Shown: positions 2,832 to 55,938 of the stretch, piece by piece | Position numbering within the stretch: the stretch's first letter is position 1 | Layout of the letters: each line of letters starts with the position of its first letter | Notes under the pieces: generated by a model | Seen by the model: the letters and a program-made list of their open reading frames with translations, nothing else | What the model was told of the DNA's origin: nothing | The model's database searches: none | Translations under genes and position numbers: made by a program | NCBI GenBank assembly: GCA_951799445.1 | Contig: OX637289.1 | Span: forward strand, 22,692,245 to 22,756,244 | Reading direction: 5' to 3' | DNA from: Pseudisothecium myosuroides | Taxonomy: Eukaryota > Streptophyta > Bryopsida > Hypnales > Lembophyllaceae | DNA: 64,000 bases

Positions 2832-2844
2832 TATCAAGTAAGTA

Positions 2845-27781: not shown

Positions 27782-28102
27782 GAGAAAATTTCAGGCCTCC
27801 AGAGGGCTACTCCACAGTCCTCCAGGGTACCCTGAAATTTGTTTTTCTTTGTTGAAAAATTCATTTTTTTCCTATTCCCACCCAACTGAAACTGCAGTGG
27901 CAATGGCGCAGAACCGAGTTTTATGAGTAAAAAAAAGATTTTTTTTTTTTTTAATCTTAAAAAAATTATTTAAAAAAATTAAAAATTAAAAATCGCAAAA
28001 ACTGACTATTCATTGCGGCAATTAGTTGGAGTGACAGACCAAGCTTTTTAATAGCTTGGTTTGTCACTTCGGAGCAGCCCTCTGGAGGGTCAAAAATTCT
28101 TC
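27782..28102. mobile_element. TA-flanked MITE with GAGGGCTACTCC inverted ends, copy 2
   Basis: This 321-bp element is flanked by TA (27780-27781 and 28103-28104). The ends pair as GAGAAAATTTCAGGCCTCC and the inverse of GGAGGGTCAAAAATTCTTC. It shares ends and an A/T-only core with copy 1 (7462-7818). The intronic reference copy at 23033-23900 lacks it. Confidence 0.72.
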
Positions 28103-28329
28103 TAATGACTTCTTTTCATTCCTGTAAGACGGGGTCAGTAGACTTCAATCTCTCTTGGAATAAAATGTTTGCTCCATTCAAAATTGAGCCTCTACACCAT
28201 CAACTACTACATTTCGTTAGGTATACATATACAAAATTTCAAAAGCATAAGGTATTTAACTTACACTAAATCACCCTGCAATGTGAGGAGTTCATGTAAA
28301 CCAACAACGGACTAGCCATTTTTTGATGA

Positions 28330-28337
28330 TTTTTTAT
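28330..28337. repeat. Left 8-bp target-site duplication of the giant hAT
   Basis: TTTTTTAT abuts the CAGGG end and is repeated exactly at 46323-46330. An 8-bp duplication is diagnostic of hAT insertion. The T-rich sequence alone would be weak evidence, but the collinear flanks remove most of the doubt. Confidence 0.88.
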
Positions 28338-28390
28338 CAGGGTTGTCTATCCGGACGTGACGTGGGCTTTTCACGTCCGGATGTCATGAC
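28338..28390 (+). repeat. Left terminal inverted repeat region of the giant hAT
   Basis: CAGGGTTGTC is followed by CCGGACGTGACGTGG and CACGTCCGGATGTCATG. It holds a local palindrome (CCGGACGTG/CACGTCCGG). The right end, read inverted, has the same elements in nearly the same order. Confidence 0.82.
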
Positions 28391-28483
28391 ACGTCCGTCC
28401 TGACGCGTCCTGACGCGTCAGGACCCGTCGCCAATGCTGACGGGACCGTCGGCGGCGCGGATGAAGTCTGTCCAGGCCGTTGT

Positions 28484-28725
28484 TGGACGGGCAACCGTCT
28501 CCTGGACGGACAGGCCGACGCTGGACGGGAGACCGTCTCCTGGACGGACAGGCCGATGCTGGACGGGAGACCGTCTCCTGGACGGACAGGCCGACGCTGG
28601 ACGGGAGACCGTCTCCTGGACGGACAGGCCGACGCTGGACGGGAGACCGTCGCCAGGACGGACAGGCCGACGCTGGACGGGAGACCGTCGCCAAGACGGA
28701 CAGGCCGACGCTGGACGGATGTCCG
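28484..28725 (+). repeat. 38-bp GC-rich tandem repeat, six copies plus a partial
   Basis: Six 38-bp units start TGGACGGGAGACCGTC, each with GACGG(N4)CCGTC and a following GGACGGACAGGCC. The copies differ by only a few bases (TCTCCTGG against TCGCCAGG). They lie between the left end and the transposase gene, where hAT elements carry subterminal transposase-binding repeats and the promoter. The composition contrasts sharply with the AT-rich surroundings. Long open frames here on both strands are by-products of the repeat. Confidence 0.93.
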
Positions 28726-29025
28726 TCGCGTCAGAATGTTCGTCTACCTGGGTTATTTTAGGGTTTCGGATTTAGGGTTTTAGGAGCGGCTTCATGGTGT
28801 ATATTTAGGACTTACGCCTATTCAAGATTACTTTTCCTTGCTGATTTTGCCTCTCGTGACTTGGTTGGAGTACAATCATTGCTCTAGAGCGAAGTCCAAG
28901 AAGAGTGTGATGTGGTGGCACTTGTTGTGAGAGCAACAAGTGTTGTTTCTACATCACATTTCAAACAGAATACTAATCTTATTGTTTTTTATGCAGGTGG
29001 AGGTGGAGGAGAACATATAAGAGCG

Positions 29026-32000
29026 ATGGAAGGAAGAAGGTCACATTGGGAACCTTGGTACACCCTAAGATCGGATGGAAAAGTTTCATGCAAATTTTGC
29101 CAAACTTTGTTAAGTTATCGAAAGGATCGATTGCTTTTCCATTTGGGATACAGACGAAATGACAATCTCCCTGGAGTGAGAGCGTGCAACAAAGCTAGTG
29201 CAGCTGTGAAAGTGGTGTTTTTTAATTGTGGAGGAAATATACCTGCAGTCGCTCCGGATGGAACTGTAGGCGACGTGGAAGTGACATCACCATCAACGAT
29301 ACAACCAAGTGCAGTACGTGGTGAGCAACAACGTGATGCCTCAGTTTCAGCAAATGAGGGAGGGAAAAACACTGGAGGCCAAAGCTCTCAAGTACGATCA
29401 TCGGAGGCGCCCAACCCTAGTTCGACCCACAATCGATCGATGAGACAATTGTCTGTACAAGAAGGAATGAACACATCAAACAAGCAAGTACTTGACAAGA
29501 AGTGGGCTAGATTTTTCTATGAAGCCAATATACCATTCAATGTAGCGAGGAACCCTGCTTTTTTGGATGCAGTGAAATCAACATCTGAATCGAGAGTTGC
29601 CTACAAACCTCCAGCTTACCATGCACTTCGTACAAAGCTCATGAAATCCACAAAAGACGAAGTGGCTGCAACGGTAGCAGAGAAGACAAGGGCATCAATC
29701 CACAAATACGGCGTGACAATATGCTCTAATGGATGGGACAATGTCACATATCGACCATTGATGAATGTCATGTTGGCATGTACAAGTGGAGAGGTATTTC
29801 TTGGATCAATAGACACAACAGGCGAATGCAAAGATGCTACTTACGTGGCTAATTGTGTGGGTGATTACATTGACGAGGTAGGGGCACAGAATGTGGTACA
29901 AGTTTGTACAGACAATGCAGCAAACATGTTGGCCGCTGGCACTTTGTTACTTGGTCGATTTCCACACATATATTTTCAAGGTTGTTCAGCACATGCACTT
30001 GATCTTCTACTTGAAGATTGGGGAAAGCAAGACTGGATAACAAGTATGGTCAAGAAGGCAAAGACAATTGTGAAATACATTCGCATGCATCACATGCCAC
30101 TTGCAATTTTTCGACGACATTCTCCAAATCAAATTTTGAAAAATCCCGTTGAGACACGTTTTGCGACCACATTCCTCATGATTGAGCGTTTGGTGGAGGT
30201 GAGGCAAGCGGTGGAATCGACAGTCCATGATGCGCAGTGGAATGAGTACACAAGGAAATTGACATCACGTCAAAAGCAAGAAAAGGCTAACAATGTGCGA
30301 CGATATGTGCGAACAGATGAATTTTGGAGGAAATGTTTGAACTTTGTGCACATGGTGGAGCCCGTCTTGGTTGCTTTTCGAGAGTTTGATGGCAAGCACC
30401 CGTGCATGGCCAAGGCATGGCTTGTGATGAAGAACGTGGAAAAGCATGTTTTATCTTTGAAAGATCCACCATTTTCATTGGAACCACGGTATGAAGTTCC
30501 CGCCGTCGATGCCTTCTACGATCGGTGGAACATGCTTAGGACAGATTTGCATTACGCAGGGGCTTTATTGAATCCCTTTTTACTTGATGAAGTCATGCTA
30601 ATGGATGACGATGAGGCAAGAGAAGCCATATTGAGAGTATTGCGCCAATTGACAATTGGAGATCAAGCATTTGCTTCTGCTTTGTCTGAGTACCAAGCAT
30701 TTCGAGATCGTCGAGGCATCTTTGGTGGACTTCCTGATGTACACACCTTAAATTTGGAGCCTCACGAATGGTGGGACCTTCTCGGAGCCGGTGCTCGTAT
30801 ACTTTCACCGATTGCCAAAAAGATCCTCGCACAAGTGTGTTCTGCATCGTCGTGTGAACGCAATTGGAGCATGTATTCGTTTGTGCACAACAAATCCCGC
30901 AACAGATTGACATCGAAGCGTGCTGAGGAATTGGTTTACATTTATATCAATTCCAAGACTCTTAGAGAAAGGGCTGCAGCAAATCCGACAAGGTGGTACA
31001 CCGAGAATATGATGTCAGAAGATTCCATGACAGATGAGTCTGATGGTTTAGACCATGGTTCGGTTCTCTTTGACCCCGATGATGATGATTCAAATGATGG
31101 CTCCAATAATGGCGATGACCCACCAAACGACAGATTTGGTGGGATGAGAAGAGTGGATCCTCTAATTGATGCATCCGTATTTGACTTTCAAGAAGAGGAT
31201 AATAACAACAATGACCACGAGGGACATGAAAGAAGTCCACCACAAATGCCACAAACGTGGAATGCTGGGCCAAGTGGGGGAAATACGAATGAGGACGTTG
31301 TGGCACCGAGACCACTATGTCCAAACCCTACAGATGTACAAGTTGATGCCACTACAGAAAGAGATGGTACTGACGTTGAAAGAGGACGTGAACAAGACGT
31401 AGTAGTACCACAGGCATTGCCCATGAGGAGCACCCATGGAGAAGGATCCCCTCATGGTGGAGAATCGGATATGCCCCCTCCAAATCAAGTCTCGGATGCA
31501 CTACAACGTCAAATGCCAGTACTGGATAATCCACGAACCCAAAGTGCATCAAGGCCGTCGACTTCCGAAGTTCGTCCCCGCGAACCAACTTCATCGATAG
31601 GTACACGATTGGCTAGTATTGTCCAAACTTTGAATATGTCTGAGCGGACGACTCCAAACCAGACTTCAGTGCGCCCTCCTACCTGTCCGAATACTCGATT
31701 TAAGCGTCCACGACAAGAAGGTACTACTGGTGAAAGAAGGGGTCTCAGAACTCGTAGAAGGATGAGGAGGGAAGAAGCAGCAACCCAGCCTTTTGCAAGA
31801 GAAGTTATTGTAGGAGCACCCAATACAGATGGTCTTCTAGATGCAACGGGCCAACGACCTCTTTGGACAATGTCTTCTATAGTTCGTCCACAGCGAAACC
31901 GCAATTCAAATGCGTCCAGCGAAAGTGGTAGTGCAACATCTAAGGATGATGGTGAATCCATCGGTGGTAGTATAGGTGAAGATGGTGAGATTCCAGGAGA

Positions 32001-32118
32001 TAGTGATTACAGGGCGCCTCGACAAGGTCCACTTGCAGGAGCTGGTGGTAACCAACAAAATCAAGGAGAAGCAAATGCAAACACTTTTGTGCATAATCTT
32101 AGGCATGGAAGACGTTGA
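29026..32118 (+). CDS. hAT-superfamily transposase, BED finger and long disordered tail
   Basis: The ATG at 29026 (MEGRRSHWEPWY) opens a 1030-aa frame. A likely splice acceptor (TTTTTTATGCAG, ending 28995) suggests a 5' leader intron. A BED-type zinc finger occupies residues 8 to about 56 (W8, C22, C25, H39, later C). A DUF659-like RNase H core follows: ICSNGWDN (232-239), the second Asp in VCTDNAAN (D296), then GCSAHALDLLLEDWG. The hAT C-terminal dimerisation block holds SSCERNWSMYSFVHNKSRNR with catalytic E611. Residue 235 is Asn where the first catalytic Asp normally sits (SDGW), so cutting activity is doubtful unless the nearby Asp replaces it. The tail from about 665 to 1030 is acidic, then Pro/Ser-rich with a basic patch (near 930-960, GLRTRRRMRRE), unusual for the family. 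The frame is otherwise uninterrupted. Confidence 0.9.
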   Translation: MEGRRSHWEPWYTLRSDGKVSCKFCQTLLSYRKDRLLFHLGYRRNDNLPGVRACNKASAAVKVVFFNCGGNIPAVAPDGTVGDVEVTSPSTIQPSAVRGEQQRDASVSANEGGKNTGGQSSQVRSSEAPNPSSTHNRSMRQLSVQEGMNTSNKQVLDKKWARFFYEANIPFNVARNPAFLDAVKSTSESRVAYKPPAYHALRTKLMKSTKDEVAATVAEKTRASIHKYGVTICSNGWDNVTYRPLMNVMLACTSGEVFLGSIDTTGECKDATYVANCVGDYIDEVGAQNVVQVCTDNAANMLAAGTLLLGRFPHIYFQGCSAHALDLLLEDWGKQDWITSMVKKAKTIVKYIRMHHMPLAIFRRHSPNQILKNPVETRFATTFLMIERLVEVRQAVESTVHDAQWNEYTRKLTSRQKQEKANNVRRYVRTDEFWRKCLNFVHMVEPVLVAFREFDGKHPCMAKAWLVMKNVEKHVLSLKDPPFSLEPRYEVPAVDAFYDRWNMLRTDLHYAGALLNPFLLDEVMLMDDDEAREAILRVLRQLTIGDQAFASALSEYQAFRDRRGIFGGLPDVHTLNLEPHEWWDLLGAGARILSPIAKKILAQVCSASSCERNWSMYSFVHNKSRNRLTSKRAEELVYIYINSKTLRERAAANPTRWYTENMMSEDSMTDESDGLDHGSVLFDPDDDDSNDGSNNGDDPPNDRFGGMRRVDPLIDASVFDFQEEDNNNNDHEGHERSPPQMPQTWNAGPSGGNTNEDVVAPRPLCPNPTDVQVDATTERDGTDVERGREQDVVVPQALPMRSTHGEGSPHGGESDMPPPNQVSDALQRQMPVLDNPRTQSASRPSTSEVRPREPTSSIGTRLASIVQTLNMSERTTPNQTSVRPPTCPNTRFKRPRQEGTTGERRGLRTRRRMRREEAATQPFAREVIVGAPNTDGLLDATGQRPLWTMSSIVRPQRNRNSNASSESGSATSKDDGESIGGSIGEDGEIPGDSDYRAPRQGPLAGAGGNQQNQGEANANTFVHNLRHGRR

Positions 32119-32387
32119 GTATTTTGAAAAAGACCAGAGTGTCTTCATGTTTCCAAATGGCAATTGGCAAATGCAATGGTTTTTCATTTTTTCCGATTTT
32201 GAGGCTCAATGCCTTGCATATTGTATTCGGCATTAATAAATATTACATTTCTTCCTTTCATTCTCGTGAAGGATACGATTTGGCAATTTGTATACTTCAA
32301 TGTATATATAAAACATACCTTTAGGAATGGTAATTGCCCGTCTTTCGGTCTTTGGAATTTTTGTGTTTTGATTCCATCTCGGAACTA

Positions 32388-32850
32388 TTAACCCCTAAAA
32401 TGTCAACTCCCAAGATCATTAGACTATCAAAAAAACACTCAAAATTGTCATTTCTGCTACATTTGCCTCAAATTACAAAAAAATTGTTTTTTACAAAATC
32501 TAACCGTAAGATCTCGTATTTCAATACTTCACTTGTTTTTTTACCATGTAGTAAAATTTTCATAAGGAGTTGAAAGGATGGATTGAAAGATATTAGCATT
32601 TGAAGTTGGAACAAAAGGTTTTTGGAATGCTGTCTTTGCAATTTTAGATTCATTTTGACCGCAATTTGCAAAAAAATTTGTCACTATTCAATTTGAATTT
32701 AAAATTTTTTATATTCAAGAATTGAGTTGAAAATATAGGAAAAACGTTGGGAGATAAATATACTTGATTTTCATCATTTACAAAAATTGCGCAATAGAAG
32801 TGTAACATTGTCAACTCAACTGTAGGAATAGGCATGAGATTGAATAGAGC
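32388..32850. mobile_element. piggyBac-like TTAA element, truncated
   Basis: TTAA-CCCCTAAAATGTC starts it. The interior (ACTCAAAATTGTCATTT, TAACCGTAAGATCTCGTA) matches other members, but no right end is found. It begins about 270 bp after the transposase stop codon. Confidence 0.6.
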
Positions 32851-33091
32851 CTAAGAGCCTTAAATTATTAATTATGTAGTTATAGAATAAAAATGGTCAA
32901 GCCAGGCCAAACCAACAAGTGTACTATTCTAACAAATAATCTACACCTCATGCGTCATGCCGTCATGATGTTATTTTCTTGCAAAAATAGTAGAAAGATG
33001 AATTAAAAAAAGACTTCAAAGTGTCATTGAAGTACAAATTCAATATTCCATAACTATCGTCAAACTAAAACTCCTCATTACTTTCATCTCA

Positions 33092-34025
33092 TTAATCCCT
33101 AAAGGACTAAGGCATTTCTTCCGTCAAAAGACACTCAAAACTGCCATTTCTATTGCAAAGAGAAAAAAACTTTAGAAATTGTTGTTTTTTGCATATCTAA
33201 CCATAGGATCTTCTACTAGACTAGTACAAGAATATGTGGAAGAAATTTCAGAAACTTTCACCAAGTACATTGCAAGATATTTGCATTTAAAGTGAAAAAA
33301 ACAAAAAAATTTGCACCTTGTTCAACTAGACTTTTTGGCTTTGAATCTTTCTAACTTAATATTTTTGCACTACACATGAGATTTTCATAATATTTTATGT
33401 TGAATAGTTGAGTTGAGAATCTAAGAAAAAAAAATTAGGAAAAAAACACTTAATTTTCATTCATTAAAAAATTGTTACGTAATAGTAGGTTCAAGATTGA
33501 AAGAAACACTATATTATTAATAGCTTTAAGAGGAAATTGAAACACAATAATCCCAATGGCTAGATTATTCTAATATGCAAACTAAACCCTATCTAACAAT
33601 TTTTTGGGAAAAATTGTTAAAATTGCATTCCAAAATGAGTTCTATAAGTTATTTTTTCAAGAAGATGCTTAGATTGCCCGAAAAACTATGATTGTCCATA
33701 ACTTTCTCATATTTAGTCCAATTAGAATGAATCAAAGCTTCACATGTAGGCAAAAATATAATCTCTTAGAAAAAAAATATTTTAAAAAATATTTTGAGTT
33801 TTTGTGATTTTTTTTGTGCTGCCCGCCAAAATCTAATTTTGCTTCACCTCCCTGTAACTTTTGCTTCCAGGCACCAATTGAAATAAAATTTATATGTCCA
33901 CAAAGCTCTTGCACAATTGCAGAACCTCAAAAAATCCCAAAAAATTTCTCTAAGAATTAAAGCTACAGGAACCTGCTTGGACCCAAATTGTCCCCCGTAG
34001 GGACAGACGGTCCTTTAGGGGTTAA
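33092..34025. mobile_element. piggyBac-like TTAA element, complete
   Basis: TTAA-TCCCTAAAGGAC opens and GGTCCTTTAGGGG-TTAA closes it, 934 bp. It is inserted in the giant hAT between the transposase and kinase genes. It is oriented opposite to the 43074 copy. Confidence 0.83.
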
Positions 34026-34445
34026 TCAAACATGGAGTGACTCAAAAATTTAAAGGGATTTTGGATGGAAAAAAGGTAGTAGGACTTTAGAGCTTGAAGT
34101 CTCTAATTTCAAATTATATTTGGTAGTCTACATGACCACATCAAATCATCAATTCATTCAGTACCCACTATTGTATAAATGTTTGGAATTAGGATTTGTA
34201 GACAACACAAACCAAGTAGCGCAAGACCATTCATTTACAAAAAACTTGCAAGGAACGGAACAAAGATTACACTCATTGTTTAGATAAAAGAAGTTTATAT
34301 TAAAAAGAAATTTGTACAAAATGGATTGAGGCCACAAAGTGTGCTACAATGCTACGGATGTCCTCAAGCCTACACTATAAGACCTGCTTGTGCTAAGTAA
34401 ACACTAATTTTGCAACTATAATAATATATATTAATATTGTTTTCT

Positions 34446-36110
34446 CTAATCTTCATTTCTTGCCTGTTGGTCTTCAAGTTCTTGTTCTTTGCGTGCCTCG
34501 CGGTAGCAATCCATGGGTGGTATCCAAAACGTTGGAGCACCACTTAATCGTTGCACGGCATATGTCACCGAGCGTCGTTGTAGTGGCTCCACCTTGCACA
34601 ATTCGCCTAGTGTTGCTTGAAATGTACCAAATGCCGTATGGTCCGGAATCATCTCTACATTTCCGTGATCCTTTTTCCATACCTTCATAGCCAATTTTCC
34701 TATGGAGTATCCGTCCGTGTGTATACTAACACACGGTGGCTTCACCATGCGACTTGGAGATGTTGAAGTTCCGGTCTGTCCAGTCAAGTACATCAACTCA
34801 GGAGCCACCCACCAACGTTTAGATCGAGTGGTCTGCAATGCCCGTGAACAATCAAATTGGTACAGAGAAGGTGTTTCTTCATTGATGCGGCTACCCATTC
34901 CCCAATCACATAGACCAATCCATATAGTTCTTCCATCATCATTTGGAAAGTGAAGCATAATGTTCTCGGGTGTGATGTCGTTGTGGAGTACAGAACACTG
35001 TTACACTGCATCCACAATGCAGATCAACGCCCACGCAAGTTCGGTGCGCTTGCGCCTATACGCCATGAATCGTTTGGCTTCTTGCATTGTTTGTGCAGTT
35101 GCATAGTAAGCCAGCTCCCCGATTTCATCCGGATCTCGATTCTTCTCATCAAGAGTAAACATGGCGCCGAGAGTACCTCCATTCCACCATTGAGAATAGC
35201 ATTCCATGGTCATGTCATTTATAGCAAAGAATTTAATGACCCCTGGATGATTGCATGGACAAGCCAGTGCCTCGATGGACAACTTTTCCCTTGACTTCTT
35301 CAATTGACCAACGTCCAAGGCTGACTTCCCAGCTAATACCATCTTCTCGGGAACATATTTTGAGTTTTGAAGACAAACCTTGCGCACCCTGCCGTGGCCC
35401 CCTCGTTTGCTATGGCCGGACAAAGGAACCACCACCACTCCTCTTTCCAGGAAAACCACTCCTCCCGCAGCCACTTGACCGAAGGCCAAGTTATGACTTC
35501 GTTGAAACCACGGAGCTGAACGAACGTTGTGTGAAGACAGTGGTCGCATTGCATCATGCCACCAATACACCTTCTTGTGCAACAAATTCAAAGCTTGTTG
35601 TTTGGGCGGCACAGTCCTTTGAAAGCCTTTAATGTGTTCAGCAACTTGGGCAATGTTGAAGACACACGTTGAAACTTGTGAATCCAACCAATGTTCAAAT
35701 GATTCCTTTGTGCGGTCTTCCAACCACTCATCCTTGCTCATTGCTGTCCAAAACAAGTGGCGGAACTTGTTTTTAATGGCATCCACTCCCTCGGATCCGC
35801 GTGAGACATATGTTGTGTTCAATTGCGCAATCGTATATTGATCCAAAAAATCCAATGCCACTTCATGCAATTTTCTCGTTGCTACCTTCCTTGGCCACTT
35901 TTCTGGATTTGCGGACTTGTGCTTGTTCCGTTGCTTTTTCTTTGCCTTCGAAGACTCTCCAGCAGCCACAGACTCTCCACCAACCATAGCATTGACCCCT
36001 TCTGCAACTACGGCCTCTGAAACGCAATCCGTTGATTCGAAATCATGTTCATCTCCAACGCCTGTAAACCAGGCATCAACCTTCCTCTTCGAGAAATCGC
36101 GACCAGCCAT
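34446..36110 (-). pseudogene. hAT-borne protein kinase, one in-frame stop
   Basis: The minus-strand frame runs from ATG at 36110 (MAGRDFSKRKVDAWF) to a stop at 34446, 555 codons including one TAA at 35001-35003 (codon 370). Residues 1-200 are unrecognised, with a Lys-rich stretch (55-70, possible nuclear signal). The kinase fold follows: Gly-rich loop GHSKRGGHGRV (232-241), Lys262, Glu280, catalytic loop LHNDITPEN (D378, N383), metal-binding CDWGMG (D402, DWG for DFG), and WWVAPEL as the APE motif. Sequence right after the TAA continues straight into the catalytic loop, so the stop is a lesion, not a gene end. It can come from CAA by one transition. The gene is cargo of the giant hAT. GACGG/CCGTC dyads lie 200-300 bp upstream. 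No host gene family member is obvious to me. Confidence 0.82.
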
Positions 36111-36316
36111 CGAGACAGAAACAGATTATCAAAATGAAAGGAATTAGGGTTTCGGGTTCCACAATGTGAAAAACCGCCCCCCTTATTCCTCAAACCAGCC
36201 TCAATCCAAGCGCCCGCGCTCCCAAGCAAGGACTGCAACCAATCCAAGACAAGAGAGCACCGTCAGAGCAGGAGAGACTGGTGCGGAACTTAATGAAAAG
36301 GCGGGTTATATACCCA

Positions 36317-36415
36317 TTTGCGGGGACGGACAGGCCGTCGGGGGGACGGGCAGGCCGTCGAGGGGACGGACATTCCGTCTCCAGGACGGGAAGGCCGTCG
36401 AGCGGGCCGTCCCCA
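36317..36415 (-). promoter_or_regulatory. GACGG-N5-CCGTC dyad cluster upstream of the kinase gene
   Basis: There are four dyads in 100 bp: GACGGACAGGCCGTC, GACGGGCAGGCCGTC, GACGGACATTCCGTC and GACGGGAAGGCCGTC. They are related to the 38-bp units at 28484-28725. They lie 207-305 bp before the kinase start codon. A role as promoter or transposase-binding site is inferred from position and repetition. Confidence 0.7.
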
Positions 36416-37955
36416 ACACTGCTGGAAGTTGCATGCGGGCTTAAATGCTGAATCCTTGTTCGTAGAATTATTCATTTACCTCGTTTGCCACTCTCGGACT
36501 TGTCAGGGGTTTGAATTTTGAAATACTACAGTACTCTACGGTGGCGGGAATTTCTGGAGTGCTAATTCAGTGTTCTTGTTTGTTTCAATTACAGGACAAA
36601 TAAATGCCAAACAAATTAATACTTTTATTAACAAAAAGCCACCAAATCATGCACTCTACAATTTTTTTAGTAACAACCTTAAAATATATAAAATACTTGT
36701 GGACTACATGATGCGGTAACCCTTTCATAAGATATGGAATCCCTTCTAAATTTTTTTTTTTCTCTTAACCCAATCCTCTCTTATTTGCAAAAGTTACATA
36801 CTTACATAAACTTCCCCAATATCAAATAGTGAATAGTCACAAAAAATTGCAACAAAAAGGAGGGTTTAGGGTTTAGGGCTTACTTTGAAGCATAAGTTGG
36901 AGTGGAAACTAGAGTAGATGACATCAATTTTTGAGTTGGGATCAAAAGTGCAAAATGCGGTTGAACCGTTGAAATGTAGACTTTGAATTAAAAAATTTAT
37001 AGGTTGAGGAATTAAATTTAAAGTTTCAACTTTTAAAAACCATAATGAAGACACCCTAAACTTTAGCACAATGTCTTTAGAACATTCTGAATTCTGAAAT
37101 ATAGATAGGTTGAAAATTCAACAAAACACTATATTTCAGGATGCATTTACATGAAAGGATGGAATTGAAATACAATAATCCCAAAGGTGAAATTCATCTA
37201 CGAGGAATTTGAAGATTCAGTTGCATTCAAAATTGAGCCCTACAAAGAACTTTAAGGGTTAAGAGATGCTTTGATTGCTAGAACACATGCATTGCCAACA
37301 ACTTTCTTGGCAATGGGTGCAAATAAAATGCATCAAATGTTTGGATGTACATAAAAATATAGTAGTCTAGGACCCCAATTAAGAAGTTTTGTGTTTGACC
37401 TTGGATGATTTTTTCCTATGTTTGTTCCTTTATGTACGTGCAAGTGTGCAACTGAATAGAATTCCATTCTAAATGAGAAGTAAGATTGACTTTAAGCTTC
37501 TTAATGTCATTTTATATAGGGCCCCTAAATAGTACACTCTACAAAAAAAAAATTGATTTTAAGTGTGTTAGAACAAACACCCTTAAAATCATGCATTCCG
37601 CGATGACGGCGATGTTGTATTGGATTTTAAGGGTCTTAGAACAAATTGAAATAAAATCATGCACTGCACCGATTATTTATTTGTTTTAAGGGTGCATAAA
37701 TTTAAAAAAATTGCAAAGTGCATGATTTGGGGCCCTTTGTTTTAATAGTAGTGGTTTCAAAAAAATGGATCAAGGAAATCCAAAAATTATTACGTTTCAT
37801 TTTGATGCCTAAACCCAAAATTGTGAACTGAGTATATTAACTCTACATTTTTGTGATTTATATGTTTTTCCTGATAGTTTATAAATTATAATGCAACGAT
37901 CCATTAAGTGCTATAGTTTTTTCTTATGGATTGATTATTATGTAATACCTTATGT

Positions 37956-38270
37956 TTAACCTCTAAAGTCCCATGGCCTCTTTTCCATTCTAAACCACTC
38001 AAATCCGCCATTTTTACCGCTAATATAGAAAAAAAAAATTGGAATTTCTAATAGTAGGATCTTGTACAAGAATAGTGTAGGAATGTGTTCCAGAAATTTC
38101 ACAAACTTTGACTATATAAACAACTATATACATGCGTTTAATGCCTAAAGTCACATTGTCCCTATGGGGGACAACATGGATTTTGGACAGGCTCATAAAT
38201 TTTTTGAAACTTTCTAATGAGATAGAAAAACTTACAAGCTTTCCCGGAATATATTTTTTAATTTAGTTGG
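37956..38270. mobile_element. piggyBac-like TTAA element fragment
   Basis: TTAA-CCTCTAAAGTCCCATGG starts it, followed by the family's GTAGGATCTTGTA block. It runs into a telomere-like repeat array near 38270 and has no right end. The stretch 36530-37955 before it is AT-rich with no gene seen. Confidence 0.55.
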
Positions 38271-38690
38271 GTTTAGGGTTTAGGGTTTAGGGTTTAGAGG
38301 TTAGGGTTGACATTCATTTGCAATTGTTGTTATTCTATACTTCTCATAGCAATTCATTGGATTAGGATTAGATTTCCAAGTAGGTTCGGGATTGATAATT
38401 GCATATATGGATGAAAAAATTTATATGTGTATGGATAAATCATAAATGGGCATTTCAACATATAATGGGGATGAATAATGGGGATGAATAATCGGTGTAG
38501 GATTAAATAAATATGCGGACGGATGAATAAAGGGGATAATGGGATATGGATGAACAAAGGGATGTTGGATGAATAAATGGATGAATGGATGAATATCCTA
38601 AATCCCTAAACCCCTAAATCCTTGAATCCCTAAATCCTAAATCCTAAACCCTAAACCCTAAACCCACGCCCTAAACCCTTAAATCCTTCA
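38268..38690. repeat. Interstitial telomere-like arrays in inverted orientation around a GGATGAATA microsatellite
   Basis: About four TTTAGGG units lie at 38268-38305. Degenerate CCCTAAA units on the same strand lie at about 38592-38685. Between them is a degenerate GGATGAATA/GGGATGAATAAT array (38390-38590). The arrangement is inside the giant hAT. Confidence 0.8.
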
Positions 38691-39429
38691 AGAATTTTTT
38701 TTTAATCCTAAACAAATAGAAAAAATGCATTCAATTTAGGATTTCGGATTGTGTTTGGAATCTTTTGGACCACATTTCAACTTATAAACTTAAATGAATA
38801 AATTTATTTGTAGATTGGCAAAGTCATGTTTGGATAAATAATTGTATTTATGTGTAAATTTGGATGTATGGATGAATACTGGGCTATTGGATGAATAACT
38901 AAGGTAAGCCAGCCTATGACAAGCAGAATGATTGATTTGGTCTGTTGCCATTAGCAAGAATAATCAATTTTTTTTTCATACAAAGACACATGTGAGAAAT
39001 GAAGAAAGCAACTGAAATTTTAATTTTTGGACAAAATATGTACAAAAATAGAGTTCGGAAGGTTGCCATAATTTTTCAGATTTTTATTTCTCAAAACGTA
39101 ATTACTATGAATTTTTCTGTCGAAGATTCTATTCAAACCATTCTAGTCATATAGACTTTCCTATTTCCAACCAAGGGCTGATTGCAAAATCCATTCAAGG
39201 TTGGTTGCATCATTGAGAGTACTAGAGGCAATCGTGATGTGCCCCAACTACCTTGGGAACCACACCGTAATAAATCACTGCTCATCTCCTGCTTCACAGA
39301 AACAGAACAGCCTACATAGCCACCAATCCCACCATAAGGCGTCGATCAGGAATGGGTTGTGTCCATGAAAGTTAGGGAAGTCCTGGCGGTGCATTCAATT
39401 TCTAACCCTGGAACGCCAAAGGCGCCATT
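38691..39429. other. AT-rich DNA inside the hAT, no gene seen
   Basis: No open frame looks coding. Nothing here helps to define another insertion. Confidence 0.45.
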
Positions 39430-40075
39430 TTGTGGCGCTTGGATGACTATCTAACAAGCTGGAGAGTGATTGGAAGCACTTTTTCATCCACATATTCTTT
39501 GTTGATCTTTTGTGTCGGGTTATGAAGAGTATCCAATTGAGTTTGTAGTCTTGCTAGTGATTGTCTTCACTTAAATGAGAAGTTATTAAAAAAAATGGAT
39601 CACAAAATATGCTATTTTAGTCTACTTTGGGAAGTTCTTGCTCCTTGCTCTAAATCTGAAAAATTTCTCCACAAAAATGATATCTTTTGAGTTTGAGCCC
39701 AACTAACAAAATGAAGGGCATCTACTCTAGTTTTTACTCCAATTTGAATTTTGAAAAAATTCCTAATATTGAATATTTTAGTGCAATTTGAACATTGGAT
39801 GTATTTTCAATGTCTATTATTTTCTAAATATAGAATGACACGGAAATTGAGTTTACACCATGATGTTTGTCATTGTAATATCCCCACATGGTGAAATTTT
39901 CAGATTTTTTGAAATAATTTTTTATTTGATGTAATTTTTCTTCATTTTTTCTTCAAAAATTCTCAAAAAAAACAATTTTCCACAAAAAAGTCTAAATTTT
40001 TTTATTAGAAGTGAAGAAGACATGTAATTTTGTCTCTGAAAAATAAATACAAATTTTTTTATACATATCTAGCTG
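39430..40075 (-). repeat. Dispersed repeat, family 2, inverted copy inside the hAT
   Basis: Read on the minus strand, this matches 45300-45930 over most of its length. Shared blocks include the ACTAGATATG / CATATCTAGCTG junction region, the CATCATGGTGTAAAC block, and a GATGAAAAAGTGCTTC end. It stops abruptly where the GC-rich dyad block begins at 40082. Confidence 0.7.
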
Positions 40076-40081
40076 AATGAA

Positions 40082-40285
40082 GAGGACGGATAGGCCGTCG
40101 AGCCGTAATTAATGTCCGTCGCCGCGTCCGTCCAACTCGCGGACGGCGCAATGATTTTTTTTATAAGCCGAACCTGTTGACGGCGCCCCCGAACCTCTTG
40201 ACGGCGCCCCGAACCTGTGCCGAACCTAAGTGGACGTTCAGACCGTCGATCGTCGAGCCGTCCGGCGCCCTGGACGGTCTGGATT
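40082..40285 (+). promoter_or_regulatory. GC-rich GACGG/CCGTC block upstream of the coiled-coil/RING gene
   Basis: It contains GAGGACGGATAGGCCGTCG, further CCGTC copies, three GAACCT(C/G)TTGACGGCGCC-like units near 40165-40215, and GGACGGTCTGG at the end. It lies 276-480 bp before the start codon at 40561, with a likely leader intron between (acceptor CATTGTGCAG, ending 40550). It is the third gene-proximal block of this motif type in the element. Confidence 0.65.
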
Positions 40286-40560
40286 ACAGATTAAAACGGC
40301 TGATTTGACCTTAATTACCCCCCCAACCGGCTCGGTAATTGGGGGGTATAAGTGAGATTAAGGATTCATTGTTGAGCGCTTCCTCTTTTGAGTTGCATTG
40401 TCCTTGCTTGAGAAAGCTTTGCATTGCAATTTGAGAGGAAGTGTTATACATTTGGCATTTGTTTTGCCACATTTCAGTTGCCTTCACGCAACAGAAGGCA
40501 AAACAATTTGTCAGTGTATTCGCATACAGACTTTTGTGTGTCATTGTGCAGGTATCAAGG

Positions 40561-42807
40561 ATGGACGTTGAGGGTGGAGCAGGTGGTTCAGGACATGAAG
40601 ATCAACCCCCAAATAGAAAGAAGAGGGGGAATAGGTCAACGCTGGATTGGGACACATTCAATGACCGGAATATTTTGGCAAACGAAGGGTGGATGGATGA
40701 GCGTGAGCCATGGACAAGAACGACATGTGCGAAGTATGTAGATTGGGCCCACATCAATTGTCATTGGGACCAAGATCGATATCAGGTGCACGTGAATTCA
40801 GGCGTGGTAAATTTTGACATGTGTCAACACGCGGCCCTCAAGAAGCGGCTGATTGAAGTGGCATTGTTCATTTGGGGTCGAAGAACAAAGAAAGACGGCA
40901 CACTTTTATTGACCCAAATGGCATATGCGGATGTTATTCTTGGGAAGGATGTGGATTGGAGTACCTTCCTGGCCAAAAAACAGAATAATCAATTGTCAAA
41001 CCGGGCTCGCGAAATTCCACCCAATCCTCAAGTGCCATTGGACGATTTATCGCATGTGCATGAGAACGTGGAAGAGCAAGCTGAGCAGCCAAGGATGGAC
41101 TTGATGGAAGTAGCGGTTGAGACGGGCACTGGAATAAATCTCAACCAACAGGGTCCAGTTGGTGGAGTGGAAGCTGCTGGTGAGGGAGTACAAGTTGTTG
41201 GCGAGGGAGTAGAAGTCGTTGACGAGGAAGTGGTTCGCTTGCGCCAATTAGTCCAAACACTGCAAGCGCAAAAGGAGGAAGCAGTACGACAACATGTTGC
41301 AGAGTTGGAAGCTCAAAGAGCAAGGGTTCAGGCCCTTATGGATGAAAATGCCAGACTCGTCGCGCATGAAGTTGACCTTGTAGCCCGTGAAAGGCGGTTG
41401 AGCATGGAAGGAATTCCACCACTCGATGTCGTAGTGGAACGTGCTACGTATGCTGCGGATGAAGATAGGCCAGGCCCGAGCAATACAAATGTGTTTCCGG
41501 TGCGGCCTCGGGTAAATTTTCCAGGTGTAGAGGGTGGCACATTGGATCTTATGCGTGCACGTGCCGAGCGAGCTGAAGTAGAGGTTGGAAGCACTAAAGC
41601 AAGCATTGAAGAATTAACAAACGCAATGCGCACTATGGAAATTCGCGCCAACAAAGCTGAAGAAGATGTGCGGTCTCTTACTGCAGCTCAAACAGACATG
41701 GAAAGGACCATGAGTGCTATAATTGCTCAAAATCAGCGAATGGTCCAGAATCCTCAGAAGGAGCACCTGCTGCGATTATTGTACAATATGAAGTTGGTAT
41801 GCAGCTTAATACTAAATGAGACCGAGCAAATGCAGACTGAAGTGAAGAGAGTGGCTGCGGAATTCAATGATGGAGGTCGACGTTATTTTGGCCTGACCTC
41901 GTGGCCTCGAGTGGAAGAAATGTTCTCCGATGCTTTGCCCGTAAAAGACGAAAATTCAAGCATTGATTGGAATCATGATCCAGCCTTGGAATTCCAATAT
42001 GATATCGAGCGCTATAGGTACGGGCCTATACAACGTGATGGCACTAGGCCACTAGTGTAGCCTACCGTTCCTAAGTTTGTAAAAGACGGGACGACGTATA
42101 TTATGTGCCAAGAACCATTTGGCCCCGAGGGTGGATGGAGTCTCGGTACGTGTATACATTTATACCACCCTATGTGTCTCATTCCCCACATGGTCACCAG
42201 AAAGAGATGTGCGCAATGCAAGGCTCCATTTCATCGACGACTGTACGAAATGTTTGGCCTCCAAGGCAATATGCCTGCACATTACGAGCATAACAAAGAA
42301 AATTTACCGGGCCAAGGTAATAGCGAATATTGGGGTCAAGACTTGACATGGTTTTGGAAGTGGGGAGGGGACACTCGACACCTTCCCGCACGAACGATTG
42401 CTGATGTACATTGGGAGAATGACGCCCATGTGACAGAGGTAATCAAGAGGGTGTATGGAGAAGGTGATATAGGGCGTCGAGTATACTTTGCTCAGATAGT
42501 TGGTGGACATTGGGACACAGATCACAACATTTTTGTGCGTCAACCACATCCTCACAACTTGCTATTTGACGCTCAGGGCAATCCCATCGGATATCGAGAT
42601 GATTTGACTTTTGAGCAGCAAACAAATTACGTTGAAGACAATACCTTCCATGAGCCTCAACTCTTGAATGCCATTTATTTCCACCTATACGATAGATATG
42701 ATGACATGACAGCTGAGCTTTTGAGGACTTTGCAATCAAGAGAAGAGTTGCAGAGATTTTTGAGACAGAGCGTAGCACGTGGCATTGTAATCGAAGGAGT
42801 AGAATAG
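40561..42807 (+). pseudogene. hAT-borne coiled-coil protein with C-terminal RING-like domain, one in-frame stop
   Basis: From ATG at 40561 (MDVEGGAGGSG) 499 codons lead to TAG at 42058-42060. The same frame stays open afterwards to 42807, 748 sense codons in all. Residues 40-140 are Trp-rich and unrecognised (HINCHWDQDRYQVHV). Long coiled coils occupy about 225-285 and 330-400. Right after the TAG comes a RING-like block: MCQEPF, GTCIHLYHPMCL, then KRCAQCKAPFH, with Cys/His spacing of a RING-H2-type finger. The first expected Cys is Tyr (TTYIMC), which could come from TGT by one G-to-A change. RING domains usually act as ubiquitin ligases. Because the finger begins only about 15 codons after the TAG with no earlier Met, I read the stop as a lesion in one longer gene. 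Confidence 0.72.
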
Positions 42808-43073
42808 ATAGTTTTGGGTGAGATTCAGTACAACTAAATAGATGTATAGAATTAAATACCGGAAGTTGTACAAAGTATACATATGTAAAGGGTTACTGCC
42901 CTTTATCGGATTTATAAAACATATACATTTATCAATTTTTCTCCACATCGTGTATTGTTGCTTTGCCTTTGACCTTTGTTTGTTGGATTTGTCTATTGGC
43001 CATTTTTGTAATAGCGTATAAGAAGCTTGTATGCTTAGATGGTAGGTAAAATAGTGTTCTATTTTATATTAGG

Positions 43074-44007
43074 TTAACCCCTAAAGGACCACTTGTCCCC
43101 TCAAGGGACAAAATGGGTCCGAGCAGGTTTCTATGGTCTGAATATGAAGACAAAGGTTTGGGATTTTTTGGAGGTTGTGTATTTTTGCAAGAGCTTTGTG
43201 GATATATAATTTTTATTGTATTTGATTCCCGGGTGCAAAAGTTATGGCACAATAAACGAAAGTGGAGTTCGACCCTAAAACCCAAAAAACACACAGGAAG
43301 TCAGAATAATTTATTTTCAATTTTTTTTTCTCAAAGATTATACATGTGAAGCTTTGTTTCATTCACTTTGGACTAATAATGAGAAAGTTGTGGACAATCT
43401 TAGTGTTCCGGGCAATCTAAGCATCTTCTATTCTTCTTGAAAAAATAAGTTGTAGAATTCATTTTCGAATGCAATTTTTAGCATTTTTCAAGAAAAGTTG
43501 TTAGACAAGGTTAGATTTTTTGGCTAGAACAATTTCACCATTGGAATTATTATGATTCAATTCCATCTAAAAGCTATCCACAATTTAGTTTTTTCCCCAA
43601 TCTTGGCCCTAAAACTCTCTTAACAATTTTTGAATGAGTGAAAATTAAGTGATTTTTTTCCTAATTTTTTTTGGTAGATTCTCAACTCAAGTATTTAACA
43701 TGAATAAGTAGAACATTTAAATTTTTAGTGTAAAAAATTTGAACTAAAAAGATTCAAAGCCGAAAAACCTAGTCAAGCGAGGTGCAAAAAAAATTGTTTT
43801 TTTCGCTTTACATGCATATACCTAACAATTTATATGGTCAAAATTTCTGAAATTTCTTCCATGTATTCATATACAAGTCAAGTATAAGATCTTATGGTTG
43901 GATATGCAAAAAAAAACCATTTTTAAAAGTTCTCTTCACTTTGCAATCGAAATGACAGTTTTGAATAGTTTTTGATAGGAAAATCAACTTGGTCCTTTAG
44001 GGGTTAT
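43074..44007. mobile_element. piggyBac-like TTAA element, complete
   Basis: TTAA-CCCCTAAAGGACC opens it and GGTCCTTTAGGGG-TTAT closes it, 934 bp. The right TTAA has one mismatch and directly abuts the start of another family member. It lies about 265 bp downstream of the RING gene's stop. Confidence 0.82.
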
Positions 44008-44570
44008 CTCCTGAAGTCCCAAGGCCATTTTTTTGCCAAAACCATCATAAATGACCACTTTTGCTGTGTTCACCTATCAAATAAATTTTAAAAATATCTT
44101 TGAGAATCTACCTGTAGGATCTTGTATTCTTGTTCTACACTTGTCTTAGATACCGTGATAAAAAATTTGTGATGTTTGACCATATAGATAGAAAGTTCCT
44201 AGCATTCAAAGTGAAAGAAGAAAATTTAATTCAAGAAATTGCTATAATTGCCCGCAAAACAGGAAACTCCATAATTTTCACATTACTAATCCATGTGGAA
44301 TGAATAAAAGCCTCCCACTTGGAAGAAAATACATTCTACAAGCAAAAAAAAATTAAAAATTTTATTTCAAATTGTTGTGGATTTTGTTGGCTGCCTGGAT
44401 TGCCCGGTCTCCCCAATTTTGAAGTTATTGTGGCATAACTTGTGCTCCCAGGTACCGATTGAGATAAAAAATTGTAATCCCCAAAAGCTCATAAGTTTAT
44501 CTATCTTATGAAAAAGTTTCCATTGAAATAGAGATCATAGGAGTCTATCCGATTTAAGCCTTAAGAATTT
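44004..44570. mobile_element. Second piggyBac-like copy directly abutting the previous one, truncated
   Basis: Its first bases (TTAT-CTCCTGAAGTCCCAAGG) align with family left ends, and it contains the family block GTAGGATCTTGTATTC. It shares the target tetranucleotide with the preceding copy. The right end is not found. From 44571 to 45230 the DNA is AT-rich with no gene. Confidence 0.55.
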
Positions 44571-45230
44571 TAAAAAAAGAAAAATCAAGTTCTAGTCTTT
44601 TGGTTTTTTTAGTTAGACTTTAGATTAACTACTCCCTCATATTTATTTTTAAATTCAAAGTTTATAAATGAAACATTTTCCTCAAATGGCAATCAAATTA
44701 TCAAAGTCTAATATCTTTCAATTGCTAACTCGATAAGGTCATATTATATGAATTTTTTTCCCAAATCAGTTGAAATAAGTGACGTGATGATCCTATATTA
44801 GCATGTTAAGATTCTAATTTTTTCTTTTCTTTTTATTTGTAAATGAATGCAAGCAAAAATGCAAAATGGCAACTTCAAGTGGTTTTGAGGCAATAATTAG
44901 CCTAGGGCCCTCATAGATGAATATTTTTGAATTTCTTGCCATACACTCGTACAATATAAAATCAATTTAGCAACTTCTCTAATTAGAAATTCAATAACGC
45001 CCTGTGCTCCCTAAATGCTTAAGTTTTGTTTTGAGTTTTTTGGAATTTTCTCTAAACAGACATTTGGTGACCAAAACGGAATACATTTTGATAAGAAGTA
45101 TAAACTTTTTTAGTTTTTTGGAATTATAACTGTATAAATTCAAAGTAGACACGTTAGAAATCTCATAGGAGAAGAAAGCACAACAATATCACACTAATTA
45201 ACATTGTAATGGAGTCAAAGATTATAATGT

Positions 45231-45930
45231 TTAACCCCTAAATGACGGACCCATTACCACTGACTTCAAGCCTCACTACTCAGTACTCAATTTGTTGCCA
45301 TTTTGCAACTAGATATGTAAGTAAAATTTTATATTTATTTTTCAGAGATGAAATTACATGTCTTCTTTACATTACAAAAAATTCAGATTTTTTGGTGCAA
45401 AATTGATTTTTCTAAGAATTTTTGAAGAAAAAGTGAAGAAAAATCACATCAAATTAAAAACTTGTTTCCAAAAATCTGAAAATTTCACCATGTGTGTATA
45501 TTACAATGACAAACATCACGGTGTAAATTCAATTTCCGTGTCATTCCATAATTAAACAATAATAGACATTGAAAATATACCCAAAGTTCAAATTGCCATA
45601 AAATATTCAATATTGTAAATTTTTCCAAATTTAAATTGGAGTAGAGACTAGAGTAGATGACCTTCATTTTGTTAGTTGGGTTCAAACTCAAAAAATATCA
45701 TTTTTGTGGAGAAATTTCAAACTTAGAGCAAGGAGCAACAACTTCCCAAAATACACTAAAATAACCTTTTTTTTTTTTTTTTTTTTGTGGTCCGTTTTTT
45801 TTACTAACTTCTCATTCACTTGAAGACAAACCCTGGGAAGACCCCAAACTCAATTGAAGATTCTTCATAACCCACCAATGGAAGGTCAAAGAAATGAAAG
45901 TGGATGAAAAAGTGCTTCTAATCCCTGCGT
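45231..45930 (+). repeat. Dispersed repeat, family 2, plus copy with TTAA-CCCCTAAA end
   Basis: TTAA-CCCCTAAATGACGG opens it, which ties family 2 to the same TTAA-type ends. The copy pairs in inverted orientation with 39430-40075. A run of about 27 T's lies at 45760-45786. Confidence 0.68.
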
Positions 45931-45956
45931 AGACCAGACACAATCATCCAAACGCC

Positions 45957-46260
45957 AGGGTTAACCATCCCGCCTGTCCAGATGTCCGTCCAGAGGCCCG
46001 TCGATGGCGGCCCGCTCGTCCAGCCCGCCCGTCCAGCTCGCCCGTCCAGCCACCCGTCCAGCGTAATCGCCCGTCCAGACCGCCAGGCCAGCCCGCCCGT
46101 CCAGCCTGCCCGTCCAGCCACCCGTCCAGCGTAATCGCCCGTCCAGACCGCCAAGCCAGGCCAGCCCACCCGTCGACTAATAACGTCCATCGAGTCCGTC
46201 CATCCATTTCTGCAGTTATTCATCCTCTGTCGACGGTTCTCGGTCAGATTTCATCCTGAC
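45957..46260 (-). repeat. Right subterminal GC-rich repeats of the giant hAT
   Basis: A 68-bp unit occurs twice (46021-46088 and 46089-46156), built from many CGCCCGTCCAG motifs. Read on the minus strand this is CTGGACGGGCG, matching the GCTGGACGGG core of the left 38-bp repeat. Both ends therefore carry the same core in inverted orientation, as expected for transposase-binding subterminal repeats. Confidence 0.85.
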
Positions 46261-46269
46261 GGACGCCGG

Positions 46270-46322
46270 GGATGGATCCGGACATCCGGACGTCCAGACG
46301 TGACGTGACGGGGACAATCCTG
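46270..46322 (-). repeat. Right terminal inverted repeat region of the giant hAT
   Basis: It ends GGGGACAATCCTG. Inside are GACATCCGGACGTCC and ACGTGACGTGACGG, mirror images of the left-end blocks. Confidence 0.82.
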
Positions 46323-46330
46323 TTTTTTAT
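46323..46330. repeat. Right 8-bp target-site duplication of the giant hAT
   Basis: TTTTTTAT, identical to 28330-28337. It is followed by GCAGTGAG, which corresponds to GCAATGAG at 23476-23483 in the intronic reference copy. Confidence 0.88.
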
Positions 46331-46877
46331 GCAGTGAGAAAAAATTTATTTGAAATCTAATCAGTGATAACTTGGAGACAAAGATTTGGAATGTGTGGAA
46401 AAAATTTGAAGAATTTTGAGAGTACAAATTCCAAGATAATAACGTTTATTTTTAGGTGAAAATATTCATTATCAAACTTCCTTCCAAAAAAGGTTGGTAG
46501 AGTTTTGGCTCTTCTTGGAAGTTGGAATGAAATTTTGCACTAAAAGTAGTTTTTTTTTACAATTGCATATTGTATCAATGTATCATGTTAGTTACATTAT
46601 TACATACATGCAAAATTTCAAAAAGTAGATGAAGAATTTAGCAAAAGATGCCCCAACTACCAAAAAGCCAAAAACTACCCAAATTTTTTGGGGTAGCATA
46701 ACATTTGATTAAAGAATCCGATTGGAATTTTTTTTACATTCCCACCAAGGAGGTGAATGTCTCCATCTAGTGTAAATTTTTCAGAATCATTCATTCATTT
46801 TTTACTTCATCATTAGTTCATTACCTATCCATATTCTAATTGTCCCTTGAACGGACATTTGGTCCTTTAGAAATTAA

Positions 46878-55223: not shown

Positions 55224-55938
55224 AGTGTGCGAGTGCAATTTCAAGTGATAGAAAATTGGAAGTTGAAAAATTTAAGTCATAGAAATGATTATTTGATTTA
55301 TATTTTGATTATGAGTTTTTATATGATAGTAATTAGTCTAATGTTGAAACACTTTATGAGTGCATGTCATGGAACTACCTTGAATCAAAGCTAGCATCAA
55401 CCTTTGTACTTGTTGATGCTATTCAAATAGTAGTAGAATCAAACATTTATGGACTATCTTTCAAGTTTACATATATAAAAAGTTTGTAGAGAAGATTAGG
55501 CTTGTTCCTACGACTTTTAAAAATGTCATCAAAACAATAATCTAGATTTGAATTATGTTTGGATATATATATATGTGTTATTTGTTTTGGATCTGCATAC
55601 TACTAAATCAAATATTTTCAATCAATCCTTAAATTTTCTATAAAAGATTATAGAGATATCCATTAAGTAGTGCAAACATAGTATAAAGAGGGGTATGGGA
55701 TTCTATATGGTATCGAGTATGGTATCTACTCTAAATTCTTGATCAAATTGTTTTAGAATGTACAAGTGGTAGAAACCTCCGCATGTAACTCATTGAGTAC
55801 TTTATAGATACATCTCTAATATACAACAATACATCCTACATTTGTTCAATTTCACCTTATTTTTATTTGAAGCTACATTTAACGATTAGCTCATGCACAA
55901 TGCAATTGATTCTATGCAGAATTTGGAAAGACCGGAAA

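What the first reader, a model, noticed from the sequence alone, without database searches (positions are those of the whole stretch)
28338..46322. An 18-kb hAT transposon carrying a kinase gene and a coiled-coil/RING gene
CAGGGTTGTC and its inverse bound 17,985 bp with an exact 8-bp duplication. The flanking halves are collinear with an uninterrupted copy of the same older element at 23033-23900. The single unit includes a hAT transposase and two genes of unrelated families. Typical plant hAT elements are a few kb with only a transposase. A signalling enzyme plus a probable ubiquitin-ligase-type protein as passengers, or as transposition/host-control factors, would be a new kind of large hAT.
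Basis: partly seen in the sequence, partly recalled or inferred. Interest (0 to 1): 0.9.

Follow-up and report, generated by a model that had tools for sequence, protein, structure and literature searches.

The report
Three-gene hAT transposon with kinase
A genome that is apparently a plant's carries an 18-kb jumping gene of the hAT kind that holds, besides its own cut-and-paste enzyme, a protein-kinase gene and a gene for a probable ubiquitin ligase; signs that the extra genes belong to the element rather than being chance passengers make it an unusual member of a family usually described as carrying one gene.

Summary
28338-46322 (17,985 bp) has CAGGGTTGTC/CAGGATTGTC inverted ends and an exact 8-bp duplication (TTTTTTAT); joined flanks align across the junction to an uninterrupted older repeat. 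Inside are a hAT transposase, a protein kinase (minus strand) and a coiled-coil/RING-H2 gene.

(2) In a diverged relative (L001, 6.3 kb) a 5'-truncated hAT transposase is followed by an open RING homologue. Two transposase/kinase pairs share exact contig lengths (6,480; 27,639) and so probably sit together; that DNA was not read. (3) Five kinase active-site residues are kept in 42-45 of 45 sequences; all eight RING ligands in 4 of 6.

So the kinase and RING genes look like accessory genes of a hAT lineage. This copy is probably dead: a stop in the kinase, a stop plus a lost zinc Cys in RING, Asn at the transposase's first catalytic position. About 3.2 kb is nested repeats. All three genes together were seen only here; the own-genome search did not complete. 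Accessory function is inferred.

The parts
28330..28337 (.). left copy of 8-bp target-site duplication TTTTTTAT
28338..28347 (+). left terminal inverted repeat CAGGGTTGTC
28395..28728 (.). left subterminal GACGG/GGACGG array (includes 38-bp tandem repeat 28473-28718), also upstream of the transposase ORF; 13 GGACGG in 28395-28718
29023..32118 (+). hAT transposase ORF (DUF659 + Dimer_Tnp_hAT, N-terminal CxxC..H..C finger); first catalytic Asp column is Asn in this copy
33092..34025 (+). nested ~934-bp TTAA-bounded repeat; family also present outside the hAT element
34446..36113 (-). protein kinase gene (about 554 aa; HND and DWG catalytic motifs), one in-frame TAA at 35001-35003
36324..36412 (.). 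array of 5 GGACGG just upstream of the kinase TATA-like box (about 36312); one further GACGG at 36260 lies downstream of that box
39465..40077 (+). nested truncated repeat, same family as 45231-45964
40084..40278 (.). GACGG/GGACGG array (5 GGACGG) upstream of the RING-gene TATA-like box (about 40347)
40561..42807 (+). coiled-coil/RING-H2 gene, one in-frame TAG at 42058-42060; first zinc Cys is Tyr in this copy
43074..44007 (-). nested ~934-bp TTAA-type repeat (one end imperfect), same family as 33092-34025
45231..45964 (-). nested ~734-bp TTAA-bounded repeat
45986..46312 (.). right subterminal GACGG/GGACGG array; 10 GGACGG in 45986-46201
46313..46322 (-). right terminal inverted repeat (CAGGATTGTC on the minus strand)
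46323..46330 (.). right copy of target-site duplication TTTTTTAT

Best explanation
This is a single, now probably inactive, copy of a multi-gene hAT transposon lineage, most likely of land plants. It carries three genes as one unit: a hAT transposase, a protein kinase and a coiled-coil/RING-H2 (ubiquitin-ligase-type) protein. Short GGACGG-type repeats arrayed at both ends and immediately upstream of the two accessory genes' putative core promoters are taken to be binding sites for an element-encoded DNA-binding protein, most likely the N-terminal zinc finger of the transposase, which would tie end recognition and accessory-gene expression together. The kinase and RING protein are proposed to modify host or transposase proteins so that the element escapes silencing or controls its own transposition. 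Shown: one insertion, three genes, shared arrays, a diverged transposase+RING relative, conserved active-site residues. Inferred: what binds the arrays, that the TATA-like boxes are promoters, that intact relatives' accessory proteins are active enzymes, and their targets.
For: Ends, 8-bp duplication and empty site. By the threshold of 4 GGACGG per 300 bp there are exactly four clusters in 64 kb: left end, kinase promoter, RING promoter, right end; outside them no 300-bp window among 11,418 overlapping ones with GC of 0.44 or more holds more than 1. Arrays lie next to TATA-like boxes (by eye) of both accessory genes. L001: hAT transposase 32-2083 (5' part cut by the contig edge) followed on the same strand by an open RING/coiled-coil ORF 2768-5395 (RING_2 4e-9), then a CCGTCC-containing array at 6145-6291. 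Kinase P0004 and transposase P0052 share a longest contig of 6,480; P0044 and P0077 share 27,639; about 0.0125 equal lengths expected above 5 kb. Kinase Lys 45/45, Glu 44/45, catalytic Asp 42/45, its Asn 43/45, DWG Asp 43/45. Eight RING ligands complete in 4 of 6 homologues. Kinase fold; the RING profile matches E3 ligases RNF24, RNF38 and RNF8.
Against: No second locus with all three genes was read. L001 has no match to any of the 44 kinases, and is cut at both sides. The kinase/transposase pairs rest on equal contig lengths, not DNA; pairs 1 base apart also occurred (2588/2589, 4361/4362) and 0.22 exact matches are expected over all lengths. P0044, of the 27,639 pair, is a 362-aa piece with no PF00069 match, though it aligns with the family. 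The APE-motif Glu of kinases is kept in only 27 of 45. RING returned 4 proteins against 44 kinases and 51 transposases, so RING may be absent from many relatives, although that search scored only part of its candidates. The two promoter arrays are short (5 sites each; base shuffles reached 4 and 3) and motif orientation is mixed. This copy's genes are damaged. No binding, expression or activity data exist.
Confidence: 0.72

Rival explanations
1. Passive capture: this copy (or a recent ancestor) picked up two host genes, as some plant DNA transposons do; they have no role in the element.
For: Both accessory genes carry a stop codon in this copy; the kinase has a distant homologue in a named plant genome (P0041, Ceratodon purpureus, 28% identity); L001 lacks a kinase match.
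Against: Both genes have the element's motif array at their promoters. P0041's cluster has 126 member sequences, which may be repeated copies or repeated deposits.
Confidence: 0.13
2. Composite: kinase and RING genes arrived as separate related hAT elements whose remnants were fused between the outer ends; the internal arrays are relics of internal ends.
For: The array near 36.3 kb resembles the left-end array (36324-36400 matches 28618-28690 at 78%).
Against: No internal CAGGRTTGTC-like end with 0 or 1 mismatch, and no excess of 2-mismatch sites. Each internal array lies on one side of its gene only, next to a TATA-like box, not on both sides as paired ends would.
Confidence: 0.1
3. Ordinary single-gene hAT into which unrelated DNA was inserted, the adjacency of the three genes being chance.
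For: Other repeats did insert into it: 33092, 43074, 45231 and a truncated one at 39465.
Against: The nested repeats found do not include the kinase or RING genes; shared arrays and the L001 pairing are not expected.
Confidence: 0.05

Closest known systems
hAT superfamily (Ac/Tam3/Hermes type; DUF659 transposases of plants)
   Same: 8-bp duplication, short inverted ends, hAT dimerisation domain, DDE columns in the family, subterminal repeats.
   Different: Known autonomous hATs carry a transposase only (recalled, not tested); here two further genes with element-type promoter arrays.
VANDAL elements of Arabidopsis with VANA/VANB/VANC (PMC5735166, passages seen)
   Same: Multi-gene plant DNA transposon with dense short-motif arrays in its non-coding regions, including upstream of a gene.
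   Different: Different superfamily (Mutator-like, recalled); VANC is neither kinase nor RING (recalled); its motifs are arrayed in one orientation, here mixed. A working analogy, not membership.
ToxhAT/ToxTA of wheat-pathogen fungi (PMC12506042, abstract and passages seen)
   Same: A large (14-kb) cargo-bearing DNA transposon once classed as hAT.
   Different: The paper finds a 2-bp TA duplication and cites 74-bp ends, and proposes a likely non-autonomous Tc1/mariner element; the element here has an 8-bp duplication and its own hAT transposase.
Starships (fungal giant transposons; PMC12506042 passages, PMC12134995 search listing only)
   Same: Eukaryotic mobile element with genes beyond the mobility enzyme.
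   Different: Starships use a tyrosine recombinase 'captain'; this is a hAT element.

Membership tests
hAT superfamily | 8-bp target-site duplication | tested here: met
   TTTTTTAT on both sides; empty site
hAT superfamily | short terminal inverted repeats | tested here: met
   CAGGGTTGTC / CAGGATTGTC, 9 of 10 identical
hAT superfamily | hAT C-terminal dimerisation domain in the transposase | tested here: met
   PF05699 2.4e-9, above the curated cut-off
hAT superfamily | D-D-E catalytic residues | tested here: inconclusive
   Second D and E present; first D column is N in this copy, D in 46 of 52 aligned sequences, N in 3, gap in 3. Family met, this copy probably dead. Assignment of the columns to the triad is recalled.
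Protein kinase superfamily | conserved Lys, Glu, catalytic-loop Asp/Asn, metal-binding Asp | tested here: met
   all five present in the window copy (stop read as X) and in 42-45 of 45 rows; the APE Glu in 27 of 45
RING-H2 E3 ligases | eight zinc ligands of RING-H2 type | tested here: inconclusive
   complete in P0045, P0046, P0047 and L001; first Cys is Tyr in the window copy; P0048 has no RING
RING-H2 E3 ligases | ubiquitin-ligase activity | not testable with these tools
   no assay
VANDAL / Mutator-like | MULE transposase and 9-11-bp duplication (recalled) | tested here: not met
   hAT transposase, 8-bp duplication

The most novel reading that the evidence does not exclude
A lineage of plant hAT transposons evolved into a three-gene system with its own kinase and ubiquitin-ligase-type regulators, under a shared motif-array control that links the transposon ends to the accessory promoters: a hAT counterpart of the multi-gene VANDAL anti-silencing elements, but using phosphorylation and ubiquitination.
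Probability: 0.45. Interest if true: 0.85.

Novelty: new variant of a known kind. Interest (0 to 1): 0.72.

Why it matters
hAT elements are textbook one-gene transposons (recalled). A lineage that keeps a kinase and a ligase-type gene over long divergence would show that this superfamily, too, has acquired regulatory genes. It would offer a concrete system for asking how a plant transposon manipulates host signalling, protein turnover or silencing, and the arrays give a testable cis-code linking ends and promoters.

Tried and rejected
Scans of viral contigs with the kinase, transposase and RING alignments and of genome contigs with the kinase confirmed no relatives; genome contigs with the transposase gave 3 loci, of which only L001 bears on the question: among the 48 kinase/RING homologues, 4 RING ones matched L001 and none matched L002 or L003 at E 1e-3. 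The RING structure model was poor (mean pLDDT 40) and was not used beyond saying that it shows long helices. Foldseek with the kinase model gave generic kinases (TM normalised to target 0.43-0.60 for 49 of the 50 listed), so no closer family is claimed; by sequence profile the best PDB match was 5e-5. Base composition of the three genes looked alike (GC 0.46-0.47, CpG o/e 0.75-0.81), but other ORFs in the window range from 0.31 to 1.14, so it was dropped as evidence. Codon comparison with L001 is near saturation at silent sites, so no dN/dS is given. The bacterial promoter scan was uninformative; Rfam and tRNA scans found nothing. Paper searches listed no title or abstract start reporting a hAT with kinase or RING genes; lists were capped (20 of 286, 15 of 24), the papers listed were not opened except PMC12506042, and only open-licence PMC papers were searched, so absence from print is not claimed.
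Full report
Observation. The window segment 28338-46322 (17,985 bp) starts with CAGGGTTGTC and ends with the inverse of CAGGATTGTC, flanked on both sides by TTTTTTAT. In 28000-46400 these are the only matches to CAGGRTTGTC with 0 mismatches; none has 1, and 16 have 2, which is not more than elsewhere (51 with up to 2 in 45,590 positions). When the flanks are joined with one duplication removed, the joined sequence aligns across the junction with 23249-23883 (66.5% over 678 columns), and a further piece matches 23050-23166. The older repeat was therefore interrupted by one insertion bounded by these ends.

Gene content. The plus-strand ORF 28888-32118 (Met at 29023) matches DUF659 (7e-41) and the hAT dimerisation domain (2e-9). 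The minus-strand kinase frame 36113-34446 matches PF00069 at 2e-8 when its stop is read as Q. The plus-strand frame 40561-42807 has long helices in a low-confidence model and a RING-H2 region. RING_2 is weak in this copy (0.014) but 1e-5, 1e-4, 4e-6 and 4e-9 in P0045, P0046, P0047 and L001, the last two reaching Pfam's cut-off. The family profile finds E3 ligases RNF24 (6e-7), RNF38 (6e-6) and RNF8 (0.0015) among solved structures. The kinase model has mean pLDDT 75 and matches kinases in the PDB.

State of this copy. In one search, 53 of 53 counted transposase alignments, 3 of 3 RING and 44 of 45 kinase alignments to the window run in one frame (one of 102 in-element alignments began outside the ranges counted), so I see no sign of a frameshift. 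Each accessory frame has one in-frame stop (TAA at 35001-35003, TAG at 42058-42060). At the kinase stop the seven closest full relatives (P0001-P0007) have Gln and more distant ones mostly His; at the RING stop P0045-P0047 have Trp. The first RING Cys is Tyr. The transposase has Asn in the first catalytic column, which is Asp in 46 of 52 rows, Asn in 3 including this one, and a gap in 3. This copy is therefore probably unable to move by itself.

Length. Two ~934-bp repeats with TTAA-type ends (33092-34025, 43074-44007) belong to a family with further copies in the window at 6375, 16082, 52393 and 54281-55223. A second such family gives 45231-45964 and a truncated piece 39465-40077. Without them the element is about 14.8 kb. 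The nested repeats contain neither the kinase nor the RING gene. I did not test the remaining non-coding DNA (for example 36.4-39.4 kb) for further old insertions.

Shared arrays. Counting GGACGG on both strands, the window has 44 sites. Stretches with 4 or more in 300 bp occur four times: 28395-28718 (13), 36324-36412 (5), 40084-40277 (5) and 45986-46201 (10). Outside these, 11,418 overlapping 300-bp windows with GC of 0.44 or more hold at most 1. In 2,000 base shuffles of each of four segments around them the means were 0.2-0.55 and the maxima 4, 4, 3 and 5, so the two promoter arrays are less extreme than the end arrays. The internal arrays end about 12 bp and 70 bp before TATA-like boxes, picked by eye, of the kinase (about 36312) and RING (about 40347) genes. 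Motif orientation is mixed. I read these as binding sites for one element protein; nothing here shows which. The transposase's N-terminal CxxC..H..C finger is kept in most rows that cover it (C 35 of 37, C 36 of 37, H 40 of 41, C 41 of 42).

Relatives. Kinase: 44 proteins at E 1e-3 or better, the closest 84% identical; only one carries a species name (P0041, Ceratodon purpureus; 126 member sequences in its cluster). RING: 4, with only part of the candidates scored. Transposase: 51. Longest-contig lengths printed for kinase and transposase hits coincide exactly in two pairs: P0004/P0052 (6,480; P0004 is on 2 contigs) and P0044/P0077 (27,639). From lengths within 50 bases I expect 0.22 such matches overall, and from lengths within 200 bases 0.0125 above 5 kb; two pairs 1 base apart exist among shorter contigs. 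None of the four RING contig lengths (3,543; 5,409; 6,309; 158,283) is among them. DNA of these contigs could not be fetched.

L001. The one informative relative whose DNA was read is CADCWO010000266.1, a 6,291-bp contig filed in a cyanobacterial genome bin; I take it for eukaryotic contamination. Its transposase (32-2083; the 5' part, with DUF659, is beyond the contig edge; 42% aa identity over 457 codons) is followed on the same strand by an open 855-aa RING/coiled-coil protein (26% over 638 codons). A single GGACGG lies just before a TATA-like box upstream of that gene (2439), and a 21-bp-period array that includes CCGTCC starts at 6145 and runs to the contig end. No kinase homologue matches the contig. 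Fourfold sites at identical residues differ in 38 of 60 and 43 of 59 cases, so the protein similarity is kept well past silent-site divergence.

Conservation of accessory proteins. In 45 kinase rows (44 relatives and the window) the Lys is kept in 45, Glu in 44, catalytic Asp in 42, its Asn in 43, and DWG Asp in 43; the APE Glu in only 27. In 6 RING rows all eight ligands are kept in 4 (P0045, P0046, P0047, L001), the window lacks one, and P0048 has no RING. This fits enzymes kept by selection, in sequences mostly of unknown host.

Comparison. Passages read show that ToxhAT, a large cargo-bearing element once classed as hAT, is now proposed to be Tc1/mariner on its 2-bp TA duplication (PMC12506042), and that VANDAL21 elements carry dense motif arrays bound by their VANC protein (PMC5735166). 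The present element works most like a VANDAL-type multi-gene transposon but is a hAT by its ends, duplication and transposase. That ordinary autonomous hATs encode only a transposase is recalled, not tested.

Limits. All three genes together were seen only in the window; the same-genome survey is missing; accessory functions are inferred. The host is taken to be a land plant, perhaps a bryophyte, from the named kinase hit, plant-type telomere repeats and a Rieske-domain gene, but this was not established.

Noticed in passing
window 2979-4532 (-): Tc5/pogo-type transposase (HTH_Tnp_Tc5 2e-11, DDE_1 4e-25) split by an in-frame stop at 3771.
   Followed up: partly
window 6375, 16082-16815, 33092-34025, 43074-44007, 52393-53332, 54281-55223: Family of repeats of up to ~0.94 kb with TTAACCCCTAAAGGACC-type ends and TTAA at the ends, piggyBac-like by that feature (label recalled); two copies lie 3' of the kinase and RING genes.
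   Followed up: partly
window 38268-38308 and 38597-38686: Plant-telomere-type repeats (GGGTTTA, then CCCTAAA about 320 bp on) facing each other inside the hAT element.
   Followed up: no
L001, L002, L003: hAT transposase sequences inside genome bins of a cyanobacterium, a Lachnospiraceae and a Halorubrum: probably eukaryotic contamination of these metagenome bins.
   Followed up: no
P0041: Kinase homologue on a 110.5-Mb record of Ceratodon purpureus (KC19_VG055000), 126 member sequences in its cluster; its surroundings could not be read.
   Followed up: no
window 18775-19635, 55789-57456, 57696-58301: Likely host genes: Rieske-domain, protein-kinase and WD40 fragments.
   Followed up: partly
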